Source: Pantoea deleyi (GTDB taxonomy: Bacteria; Pseudomonadota; Gammaproteobacteria; Enterobacterales; Enterobacteriaceae). From it: 64,000 nucleotides of DNA. Every line of letters starts with the position of its first letter. Position 1 is the first letter of the stretch. Of the stretch, positions 38,760 through 51,479 are shown piece by piece. Position numbers and translations under genes: made by a program. The notes below the pieces were generated by a model, which saw nothing but the letters and a program-made list of their open reading frames with translations, was not told the origin of the DNA and did not search any database. The stretch covers positions 682,001-746,000 of the forward strand of contig NZ_CP071405.1 in the NCBI RefSeq assembly GCF_022647325.1, written 5' to 3'.

Positions 38760-38879
38760 TATTTTATCGGACGGCGGAAGAGACTTCTCTTGTCCTTACG
38801 TCCTGTAACGCAGCGGCCTTTATTGCCTCTGTTTCGCCCACAGTTTTTGGGTGAGTTAACTGATAGAAGGAAGATATCG

Positions 38880-39494
38880 ATGAACAAGACTAAGATTGCT
38901 AAAACCCTGATGGCCGCCATGATTGGTTCAGCTCTGATCAGCGGCAGCGCACTGGCTGATGAATCCATGTCGCAGAAAGCGTCACAGACAGCCGACAGCG
39001 CGGGTTCAAAAATCGATAGTTCTATGAAAAAAGTCGATGGTTTTATGGATGACAGCGGCATCACCGCCAAAGCCAAAGCGGCCCTGGTGGATGACGACGC
39101 AATTAAAAGCACGGATATCTCGGTAAAAACGCATCAGGGCGTCGTGACCTTAAGCGGTTTCGTCACCTCACAGGAGCAGGCTGAAAAGGCTGTGGCTGTG
39201 GTGCAGAAAATCGAAGGTGTTAAATCCGTCAGCGACAAACTACACGTCCGTGACAGCAAATCATCTTCAGTGAAAGGTTATGCGGGTGATGCCGCTACGA
39301 CCAGCGAAATTAAAGCTAAGCTATTAGCAGATGACATTGTCCCGTCGCGCAACGTCAAAGTTGAGACTACCGACGGTGTTGTTCAGCTTTCAGGCCATGT
39401 TGCTACTCAGGCACAGTCAGACCGTGCAGAAAGCATCGCCAAGGCCATTGAAGGCGTGAAAAGCGTTAAGAATGACCTGACGGTTAAATCTTAA
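38880..39494 (+). CDS. osmY: Periplasmic osmotically inducible protein OsmY
   Basis: OsmY is a periplasmic stress protein with chaperone-like activity induced by osmotic stress and stationary phase. The 204-aa product has a signal peptide ([16 protein letters not shown]) and two BON domains (about 58-125 and 137-204), with repeats of the type [16 protein letters not shown] and [16 protein letters not shown]. The start at 38880 follows GAAGGAAG and fits E. coli OsmY (201 aa); a longer frame from 38739 has no support. Confidence 0.96.
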
Positions 39495-49950: not shown

Positions 49951-50026
49951 GCCCGAATAGCTCAGTCGGTAGAGCAGGGGATTGAAAATCCCCGTGTCCC
50001 TGGTTCGATTCCGGGTTCGGGCACCA
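49951..50026 (+). tRNA. pheT-type tRNA-Phe: tRNA-Phe (GAA)
   Basis: A 76-nt tRNA with encoded CCA, anticodon GAA at 49984-49986 and the T-arm GGTTCGATTCC. It differs from E. coli tRNA-Phe at few sites; the changes in the acceptor and T stems are complementary (GCCCGAA with TTCGGGC). A terminator follows 10 bp after its 3' end. Confidence 0.98.
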
Positions 50027-50108
50027 TATTTAAAGAACCCGCCTCTGGCGGGTTTTTGCGTTCTGAGGCGAACCCGTCATCGACGGTTCGATTCACTCGC
50101 CACGTCCT
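50010..50108 (+). repeat. Repeat copy 1: tRNA-Phe 3' end, terminator and second hairpin
   Basis: About 99 bp starting in the tRNA T-arm are repeated at 50165-50263 with only a few changes. The unit holds the last 17 nt of the tRNA, the terminator and a second stem-loop (50069-50090). Confidence 0.9.
50036..50057 (+). terminator. Terminator of tRNA-Phe (copy 1)
   Basis: AACCCGCC and GGCGGGTT pair around TCT, followed by TTT. An identical copy lies at 50191-50212. Confidence 0.88.
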
Positions 50109-50143
50109 GTGGCTCGCCCTGTGGGTCGCGCTGACGCGCGATG

Positions 50144-50164
50144 CAAAAATGCCCGGCATTTTTG
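50144..50164. repeat. Perfect 10-bp inverted repeat before repeat copy 2
   Basis: CAAAAATGCC and GGCATTTTTG flank one C. It ends exactly where the second copy of the tRNA-tail repeat begins. Confidence 0.7.
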
Positions 50165-50263
50165 TCCGGGTTCGGGCACCATATTTAAAGAACCCGCCTC
50201 TGGCGGGTTTTTGCGTTCTGAGGCGAACCCGTTATCGACGGTTCGATCACCCCGCCACGTCCC
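50165..50263 (+). repeat. Repeat copy 2 of the tRNA-Phe 3' end region
   Basis: Offset 155 bp from copy 1. It carries the terminal 17 nt of tRNA-Phe with CCA but no 5' part of the tRNA, then an identical terminator and a second stem-loop (50224-50245) where one C-G pair has become U-G. Confidence 0.9.
50191..50212 (+). terminator. Terminator, copy 2
   Basis: Identical to the terminator at 50036-50057; stem AACCCGCC/GGCGGGTT, loop TCT, then T-run. Confidence 0.8.
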
Positions 50264-50504: not shown

Positions 50505-51479
50505 ATGTCAGAAGAAGCACTGCGGCTGCAGATACAGAACCTGAAAAAGCATAATGCGCGTCTGAAGCGTATAGCGCATGACGCCCGGACGAAACTCAAC
50601 GCGGCGCTGGATGGCACCGGGCTGTTTCTCTGGCAGCTCGATATTCCCACCGGCAAACTGGTGATCTTTAACCGGCGCTGGGGGGCGATGCTGGGTTTCC
50701 AGCCGAAAGAGACCGACGCCAATTTTGAATCCTGGAAAGAGAGCCTGCACCCCGATGATGCCGCTGAGGTTCTGCGGGCGTTTTACGATCATATCGCCGG
50801 CAAAGCGCCTTACTACGAAGCGCTGCACCGTATGATCGCGAAGAACGGCAGCATTACCTGGGTGCTGGATCGCGGGCGGGTCAGCGAATGGAACGCCCAG
50901 GGTGAGCCGGTGAAAGTGATCGGCACCCATATCGACATGACGAAAGAGAAGCAGTATGAAGCGCAGCTCGCGCTGCTGGCGTTGCATGATCCCCTGACGC
51001 TGCTCAACAATCGCCACGCCCTGCAAAACGATTTCAGCGAAATGAAAGCGCAGGGCCCGCTCTGCGTCGCCTTCATTGATCTGGATAACTTCAAGCATGT
51101 TAATGACACGCTGGGACATCGCAGCGGAGACGAAGTGCTCATCCAGCTCAGCCAGCGTTTAACGGATTGTGTACCGGCTGAGGCGGTTATTGGGCGGCTT
51201 GGCGGCGATGAGTTCGTTCTGTTATTACCCTATCCACTGCACCATCCCCTGGTCAGAAAACTGGCGGATGCCTGTCTCGACGCGGTGCTCACGCCATTCG
51301 ACATGTCAAACGGTCACGCTCAGATTGGCGCGTCTGTCGGCGTGTCGCAGGTGCAGGATAACGATGACTTCGATACCGCACTGGCGCGGGCGGATGAAGC
51401 GATGTATCGCATCAAGAAAAATGGCAAACGCGGTGTCGCGATGGATGACGTTTTTCCCGACGCGCTCGACCTCTGCTGA
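50505..51479 (+). CDS. PAS-GGDEF diguanylate cyclase
   Basis: This 324-aa cytoplasmic protein has a short coiled start (ALRLQIQNLKKHNARLKRI), a PAS domain with C-terminal PAC motif (about 30-150, ending VKVIGTHIDMTKEKQ) and a GGDEF domain (about 160-320) with intact motif in GRLGGDEFVLLL. The RxxD inhibitory site is absent (PAEA in its place), so product feedback may be weak. It makes c-di-GMP from GTP. It stands alone after the tRNA-Phe region. The input signal of the PAS domain is not evident. Confidence 0.9.
   Translation: MSEEALRLQIQNLKKHNARLKRIAHDARTKLNAALDGTGLFLWQLDIPTGKLVIFNRRWGAMLGFQPKETDANFESWKESLHPDDAAEVLRAFYDHIAGKAPYYEALHRMIAKNGSITWVLDRGRVSEWNAQGEPVKVIGTHIDMTKEKQYEAQLALLALHDPLTLLNNRHALQNDFSEMKAQGPLCVAFIDLDNFKHVNDTLGHRSGDEVLIQLSQRLTDCVPAEAVIGRLGGDEFVLLLPYPLHHPLVRKLADACLDAVLTPFDMSNGHAQIGASVGVSQVQDNDDFDTALARADEAMYRIKKNGKRGVAMDDVFPDALDLC

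What the first reader, a model, noticed from the sequence alone, without database searches (positions are those of the whole stretch)
50010..50263. rtT-like repeat of the tRNA-Phe 3' end with conserved RNA structure
After tRNA-Phe, 99 bp beginning in the T-arm are repeated at an offset of 155 bp. The repeat carries the last 17 nt of the tRNA, a terminator and a second stem-loop. The only change inside the second stem converts a C-G pair to U-G, so pairing is kept. E. coli tyrT shows a similar plan: 178-bp repeats each with the 3' end of tRNA-Tyr, giving the rtT RNA linked to the stringent response. A tRNA-Phe version is not known to me. It could give a processed RNA with a mimic of the tRNA end, or be a relic of a duplicated tRNA gene.
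Basis: partly seen in the sequence, partly recalled or inferred. Interest (0 to 1): 0.78.

Follow-up and report, generated by a model that had tools for sequence, protein, structure and literature searches.

The report
tRNA-Phe-linked repeat carrying mobile RNA element
Downstream of a tRNA-Phe gene, the tRNA's last 17 bases are repeated around a small folded element; similar repeats follow tRNA-Phe in many enterobacteria, and related elements occur in known tRNA- and rRNA-linked RNAs of E. coli, which suggests that a mobile element lies behind this old, unexplained class of repeats.

Summary
The repeat is real: 98 nt at 50010-50107 recur at 50165-50262 (95%, offset 155), with the last 17 nt of tRNA-Phe, a terminator and a stem-loop. 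It is a tRNA-linked repeat (TLR), the class of E. coli rtT, whose stringent-response claim was retracted (PMC8144298). It is no isolated relic: a pattern scan found 73 places, nearly all enterobacterial by title, where tRNA-Phe is followed by a second tail 158-168 nt on. Aligned units share a multi-hairpin fold closed by tail/anti-tail pairing. Rfam's RtT does not match it. The main discovery is the central 74 nt: a model trained without any Phe unit finds it (53.6 bits). Related elements lie, inverted, in the rrnA/rrnB trailers (49.9 bits), in the E. coli tyrT repeats (weak, 20-26 bits) and in Lys, Arg, Pro and tmRNA trailers; others interrupt ERIC repeats and Rhs-core genes. Beside tRNAs it mostly sits in the T-loop of a partial copy of the tRNA end. 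TLR bodies thus look like one mobile folded element. Cutting of read-through transcripts into 155-nt RNAs is inferred; function is unproven.

The parts
49951..50026 (+). tRNA-Phe(GAA) gene, intact, with encoded CCA
   Evidence: ARAGORN; Rfam RF00005 68.7 bits
50010..50026 (+). tail copy 1: last 17 nt of the tRNA
   Evidence: direct repeat
50027..50032 (+). AU-rich start of the trailer, possible RNase E site
   Evidence: sequence; RNase E role inferred by analogy with RrB, PMC8144298
50033..50057 (+). terminator T1: GC-rich stem and U run
   Evidence: fold; not flagged by the simple scan
50069..50076 (+). anti-tail CGAACCCG, complement of the tRNA tail
   Evidence: own tail scores above 37 of 38 other tails; (10 of 500 shuffles as good)
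50085..50092 (+). GGTTCGAT: like the T-stem 5' strand and T-loop start of the tRNA; junction with the element
50093..50166 (+). structured element, 74 nt, several hairpins; last two bases overlap tail copy 2
   Evidence: model R3, trained without Phe units: 53.6 bits, E 4.1e-11 in 659 kb, E 2.9e-10 in the whole genome
50165..50181 (+). tail copy 2: 17 nt identical to the tRNA 3' end, CCA included
50027..50181 (+). full TLR unit, predicted RNA of about 155 nt
   Evidence: model R1 matches 50058-50181, 77.5 bits (a training sequence); processing is inferred
50188..50212 (+). terminator T2, identical to T1
50224..50231 (+). second anti-tail CGAACCCG
   Evidence: repeat copy 2
50240..50262 (+). 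GGTTCGAT plus about 15 nt resembling the start of a second, truncated element; end of the array
   Evidence: comparison by eye with 50085-50107

Best explanation
This is a tRNA-linked repeat (TLR) at tRNA-Phe. Shown by sequence: after terminator T1 lies a partial copy of the tRNA 3' end, and a 74-nt multi-hairpin element sits at its T-loop position. Related elements are dispersed in gammaproteobacteria and lie in other TLRs, mostly in the opposite orientation. The tail can pair with an anti-tail upstream, giving a closed unit that ends in CCA. Inferred: transcripts that read through T1 are cut after each CCA (RNase E at the AU-rich start, then trimming, as suggested for RrB), releasing a unit RNA of about 155 nt, while T2 is a back-up terminator. 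Copy number changes by recombination or slippage between units of 155-168 nt. The element spreads by an unknown route, and trailers beyond T1 tolerate it because they are transcribed but not essential.
For: Repeat and tail. Other tail repeats without a full tRNA in this genome: Ser-GGA 3, Pro-TGG 2, Lys 1 and Arg-ACG 1 (these two with one mismatch) among 78 tRNAs, and a second Phe array with 3 tails. Phe units in 73 places. Structure: RNAalifold finds the tail/anti-tail helix unaided; 34 named pairs are 92.1% paired against 85.8% in shuffles and at most 41.3% when slid, 17 pairs with double changes (shuffled mean 11.7, 0 of 500 reach it). Shared element: R3, trained on 17 elements with no Phe unit, matches the window and all 73 Phe loci. 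R2, trained without rRNA, Tyr, Lys, Ser, Arg, Leu or Pro trailers, matches rrnA and rrnB (49.9 bits, E 3.6e-13), Val/Lys, Ser, Arg, Leu, Pro and a distant Phe trailer (35-80.5 bits) and 4 places at E. coli tyrT (20.6-26.2 bits). R2 lies inside RtT units on the opposite strand (L236; L100). Specificity: in the own 4.68-Mb genome R3's first seven matches are four Rhs inserts and three Phe units, the next two (E 0.25) are the two Pro RtT units, then two at 14-15 bits. Position: GTTC within the last 10 nt of the 5' flank in 17 of 19 cases; 3' flank at least 85% identical to the RNA 3' end in 15 of 18. Insertion: joined ERIC flanks match 40 uninterrupted places in each of two genomes, the scoring cap. 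Copy number.
Against: No RNA data: read-through, cleavage and half-life are untested. The anti-tail is clear for Phe and Tyr but not for Arg, tmRNA, Leu, Pro and Ser units of other families (74 to 443 of 500 shuffles as good; Lys 27-30). Double changes in the tail/anti-tail helix fall in one lineage (10 rows, Pantoea and Tatumella); there the number of pairs with double changes was reached by 396 of 500 shuffles, though cells (20 against 4.3) and covariation score were reached by none. For the whole structure the number of pair types is no higher than in shuffles (39 against 39.3, 330 of 500), helix 2 has no double change and helix 7 pairs in 67.6% of cells; the structure came partly from these same sequences. 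No short-spaced (element-free) Phe tail repeat in 295 genomes. Matches to E. coli tyrT are weak (R3 22.2-25.6 bits), those to own Lys and Pro units weaker (R2 15.9-20.4); the own Ser units gave none with R2 or R3, Lys none with R3. All three Ser cases fail the tail test. Most loci used to train or test R2 and R3 were found with Phe-trained models, E-values are rough, and no shuffled-sequence control was run for them.
Confidence: 0.72

Rival explanations
1. Neutral tandem duplication: slippage or unequal crossing-over copied the tRNA tail and terminator, and the fold has no use to the cell.
For: Copy number varies from 0 to 3 extra tails among 47 Pantoea loci; units within one array score alike, e.g. 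70.8, 70.8, 70.8 and 69.6 bits in L149; E. coli MG1655 has none at pheV or pheU and 0 of 5426 E. coli genomes cover 80% of a Citrobacter array.
Against: Units of one architecture and 158-168-nt spacing recur in many genera, with double changes in several hairpins and anti-tails that follow the tRNA variant.
Confidence: 0.3
2. A functional small RNA: the unit RNA is released with tRNA synthesis and acts as a regulator, as proposed for RrA/B/F with CsrA and Hfq.
For: RrA/B/F are processed and bind Hfq and CsrA (PMC8144298), and rrnA and rrnB trailers carry a related element; structure is conserved.
Against: The window unit has no GGA (CsrA core motif); first units of the 73 Phe loci have one (48), two (16), none (8) or three (1), against 5 in the 173 nt after the rrnB 5S gene. 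PMC8144298 gives the other 19 E. coli TLRs a score under 0.01 for CsrA-type binding and reports modest phenotypes for rrA/B/F. The hairpins are also kept where the element sits in ERIC and Rhs DNA, so they need not reflect a TLR function.
Confidence: 0.2
3. Attachment-site scar: integrative elements that use the tRNA-Phe 3' end left repeated att sites.
For: The second Phe locus of this genome holds an inserted element of about 99 kb: intact tRNA beside a recombinase-like ORF at 3557027, and half a tRNA beside ParA-, DnaB- and ParB-like ORFs at 3656285 (ORF names by eye).
Against: There the shared stretch runs back to the anticodon arm (50 nt of tRNA), the TLR tail is 17 nt; spacing is uniform, the 138 nt between the tails hold no room for an integrase, and related elements occur at many other RNAs, in ERIC and in Rhs DNA.
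Confidence: 0.04

Closest known systems
tRNA-linked repeats (TLR), E. coli tyrT rtT/RttR, Rfam RF00391
   Same: Partial tRNA 3' end repeated after the gene, tandem units, tail/anti-tail helix; a weakly matching element inside
   Different: At tRNA-Phe; element in the opposite orientation; no RF00391 match in the window at E up to 5 nor, at gathering score, in any of 18 other Phe loci
RrA/RrB/RrF RNAs of the rrnA, rrnB, rrnD trailers (PMC8144298)
   Same: Repeat of the upstream RNA's 3' end, two terminators, related element (rrnA and rrnB 49.9 bits; rrnD not tested)
   Different: Follows 5S rRNA; element inverted, with 4 GGA in it; the window unit has none
Insertions of about 70 bp in ERIC repeats (Cromie 1997; Wilson and Sharp 2006; both recalled, not read)
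   Same: L230-L232, L253, L258 and L265 carry the element within ERIC-like sequence (ERIC judged by eye, its sequence seen in a passage of PMC2759123)
   Different: Not beside an RNA gene; whether the published insertions are this element was not checked
Rfam RF02902 AaHKsRNA22
   Same: Overlaps the element on its other strand in L225, L251, L253, L257 and L274 (28.1-40.1 bits)
   Different: Only L253 passes the cut-off of 39.8; no match in 5 of 10 element loci searched at E up to 0.05 or 0.1 (L100, L224, L268, L272, L276) nor in the window

Membership tests
tRNA-linked repeat (TLR), as described in PMC8144298 | 3' end of the unit identical to the 3' end of the RNA gene just upstream (18-19 bp in E. 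coli) | tested here: met
   17 identical bases ending in CCA, one or two short of the E. coli figure
tRNA-linked repeat (TLR), as described in PMC8144298 | One to five units per locus, directly downstream | tested here: met
   One unit plus the start of another here; 1 to 4 further tails in the 73 loci (some loci are cut short)
tRNA-linked repeat (TLR), as described in PMC8144298 | Transcribed and processed (shown for some members) | not testable with these tools
   no RNA data in hand
Rfam RF00391 RtT | Covariance-model score of at least 45 bits | tested here: not met
   no RtT match in the window; 0 of 18 other Phe loci. It works like rtT but is not a member of this Rfam family
RrA/B/F-type CsrA-binding RNA | Several GGA motifs | tested here: not met
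   0 GGA in 50027-50181; 5 in the 173 nt after rrnB 5S
Shared structured element | Significant match to a model that was not trained on Phe units | tested here: met
   R3: window 53.6 bits, E 4.1e-11; 73 of 73 Phe loci matched at E up to 1.1e-5. Training loci were mostly found with Phe-trained models
Shared structured element | rtT (tyrT) units belong to the same element family | tested here: inconclusive
   4 of 4 E. coli places match, inverted, but at only 20.6-26.2 bits (R2) and 22.2-25.6 bits (R3); own Ser units do not match
Duplicated tRNA gene | Second copy of the tRNA body | tested here: not met
   ARAGORN finds a single tRNA in the window

The most novel reading that the evidence does not exclude
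TLRs, rtT, RrB, AaHKsRNA22 and ERIC inserts are one family: a folded mobile element of 75-85 nt in gammaproteobacteria that settles in hairpin loops of DNA, above all the T-loop of a copied tRNA or tmRNA 3' end. Insertion and tail copying could be one event that leaves the tRNA intact, which would make the trailers of stable RNA genes safe homes for it.
Probability: 0.5. Interest if true: 0.82.

Novelty: new variant of a known kind. Interest (0 to 1): 0.66.

Why it matters
TLRs have been known since 1978 and have no known function (PMC8144298). If their body is a mobile element, their repeats of RNA 3' ends, their tandem arrays and their patchy distribution get one explanation that can be tested by sequence alone. 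The rrnB terminator segment, which PMC8144298 counts among the most used on plasmids, carries a copy. It also warns that structure conservation in TLR-type RNAs may belong to the element and not to a cellular function.

Tried and rejected
Rfam matches under the cut-off in the window (P9, rnk_pseudo, rsmX and others) follow GC-rich stems and were set aside. E. coli as a source of Phe units: no match to the window repeat, 4045 of 5426 genomes match a Citrobacter array but none over 80% of it, none at MG1655 pheV and pheU. Short-spaced Phe tails: 0 of 295 genomes (exact pattern, so weak evidence). Promoters: the two promoter-like sites lie after the array. A CsrA role: no GGA here.

Literature: ten searches ran. 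None of the listings or passages I saw links TLRs with ERIC or Rhs inserts. Most subscription papers, Rudd 1999 and Cromie 1997 among them, were not seen, so priority cannot be judged. Seen as passages: PMC8144298 (also the first of two parts of its discussion), PMC9245011, PMC4986893, PMC2759123, PMC2229807, PMC10969869. All others: listing only. The RU-2/YPAL repeat was not tested against the models.

Limits of counts: the pattern allowed a spacing range of about 30 nt, so units longer than 168 nt would be missed. One search found 48 tRNA-Phe ends (47 intact) in 50 loci, the window's own included; L119 and L120 gave none. The 19 cases were picked by hand and hold several units of one locus. 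Whole-genome model searches scored at most 11 to 20 candidates per genome in the large samples, so copy numbers are lower bounds. Neighbourhood of the best element per genome: 13 of 29 order loci lie within 500 nt downstream of a tRNA or tmRNA, one more after 5S; of 9 class loci 4 do (L280, L282, L287; L281). The script also named L284, but there the model hit lies upstream of the tRNA, so I do not count it. Its pattern missed some elements.

Full report
Observation. tRNA-Phe lies at 49951-50026. The 98-nt repeat 50010-50107 / 50165-50262 is confirmed at offset 155, with 5 mismatches; 17 nt of it are tRNA. Such tail matches are not chance.

In this genome. A second tRNA-Phe locus carries three tails at spacings 155 and 143, the third with one change, and is 95% identical over 286 nt to the window array, but an inserted element of about 99 kb separates it from its intact tRNA. 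Tails without a full tRNA are also repeated after Ser-GGA (3), Pro-TGG (2), Lys and Arg-ACG (1 each, one mismatch) among 78 tRNAs; the other hits are tandem tRNA genes. Contigs of G005, G029 and G031, placed in the same genus, have the same lengths as Pantoea records, so I take the genus as Pantoea.

In other species. One exact-pattern scan of the species genomes returned 73 stretches, and in 73 of 73 a script found tRNA-Phe followed by a second tail 158-168 nt on: Serratia, Yersinia, Klebsiella, Raoultella, Kosakonia, Enterobacter, Erwinia, Pantoea, Tatumella, Lonsdalea, Rahnella and others by their titles; two titles (Chryseobacterium, an uncultured Pseudomonadales) may be mislabelled or mixed. 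E. coli lacks it as far as tested. Within Pantoea, 47 intact tRNA-Phe loci have 0 (28), 1 (13), 2 (3) or 3 (3) extra tails; one of the 28 had only 30 nt downstream.

Structure. In the 74-sequence alignment RNAalifold predicts a helix between tail and anti-tail and several hairpins, 11 of 22 pairs with a double change. With the structure I named, 92.1% of cells pair (85.8% in shuffles, at most 41.3% when slid), and 17 of 34 pairs have double changes. Against it: pair types are no more numerous than in shuffles, helix 2 does not covary, helix 7 pairs in 67.6% of cells. Tail GAGUCCG faces anti-tail CGGACUC in most rows, and GGGUUCG faces CGAACCC in ten rows of Pantoea and Tatumella: good pairing but one lineage.

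The element. Model R1 of the Phe unit also hit Rhs-core genes, ERIC-like repeats and other tRNA trailers, more weakly, through its central part (one ORF with RHS domains; other Rhs and ERIC contexts judged by eye). Model R2 was trained on 24 central parts from Phe units, Rhs inserts and ERIC inserts. Outside its training set it matched Val/Lys, Ser, Arg, Leu, Pro and a distant Phe trailer at 35-80.5 bits, four places at E. coli tyrT at 20.6-26.2 bits and own Lys and Pro units at 15.9-20.4 bits; the own Ser units and L070, L088, L096, L194 and L195 gave nothing at E up to 1. The rrnA and rrnB trailers gave 49.9 bits. The trailer loci had been chosen from R1 hits; tyrT and rrn had not. Among 138 matches at E up to 1 in 629 kb, all but five by my reading of positions lie in Phe arrays (exceptions L137:6005, L148:3220, L168:7426, L176:2, L190:879).

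Independent model. R3 was trained on 17 elements from Rhs, ERIC, tRNA, tmRNA and rRNA contexts and two of unknown context, with no Phe unit. It matches the window element at 53.6 bits, E 4.1e-11, and all 73 Phe loci, the weakest at 32.6 bits; E. coli tyrT again weakly (22.2-25.6 bits), own Pro units at 19 bits, own Ser and Lys units not. In the whole own genome its first seven matches are four Rhs inserts and three Phe units; the two Pro units come next at E 0.25, then two at 14-15 bits.

Distribution. R2 matches 120 of 295 genomes of the order sample (46 of 99 genera, E up to 0.001) and 83 of 229 of the class sample (E up to 1e-4). R1 matches 56 of 295.

Where it sits. In 19 hand-picked trailer cases GTTC lies within the last 10 nt of the 5' flank in 17, and the 3' flank is at least 85% identical to the upstream RNA's 3' end in 15 of 18; the three Ser cases fail. 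So the element mostly occupies the T-loop of a partial 3' end. It runs with the RNA in Phe and Leu cases and against it in Lys, Ser, Arg, Pro, Tyr and tmRNA cases. In rrnB the flanks GAGTAG and ACTGCCAGGCATC both resemble the 5S end. Joined flanks of one element in an ERIC-like repeat match 40 uninterrupted places in each of two genomes, the cap.

Mechanism. Shown: composition, folding potential, distribution. Inferred: read-through, cleavage after CCA, release of unit RNAs, spread of the element. PMC8144298 reports for RrB a 3' end 3 nt past its repeated tail and suggests RNase E; it states that TLRs have no known function and that the tyrT phenotype came from a nearby reading frame.

Verdict. 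A tRNA-Phe member of the TLR class, with its element inverted relative to rtT, and probably a common mobile element behind much of the class; the link is strong for Phe, rRNA, Lys and Arg trailers, weak for rtT itself. Cellular function remains open.

Noticed in passing
L224 (G000:C1:2344527-2350719): Four copies of the element lie within Rhs-core coding sequence, on the opposite strand, and interrupt it
   Followed up: partly
L081 and L026 (G000:C1:3557027-3656570): Inserted element of about 99 kb in the second tRNA-Phe gene; it has cut that gene's TLR array off from the tRNA
   Followed up: partly
L276:438-513 and L278:518-593 (E. coli rrnB and rrnA): The trailers after 5S carry the element; the rrnB terminators are much used on plasmids (PMC8144298)
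   Followed up: yes
L257, L268, L281: tmRNA genes followed by the element; in L268 and L257 beside a partial copy of the tmRNA 3' end
   Followed up: partly
L263, L286, L284: Several element-like stretches close together
   Followed up: no
L168:7426-7503 and L148:3220-3293: Strong element copies away from the Phe array (88.5 and 42.8 bits); context not examined
   Followed up: no
window 38810-38882: Rfam osmY RNA (RF03036), 77.7 bits
   Followed up: no
window 50505-51479: ORF downstream of the array that reads like a PAS/GGDEF diguanylate cyclase (by eye)
   Followed up: no
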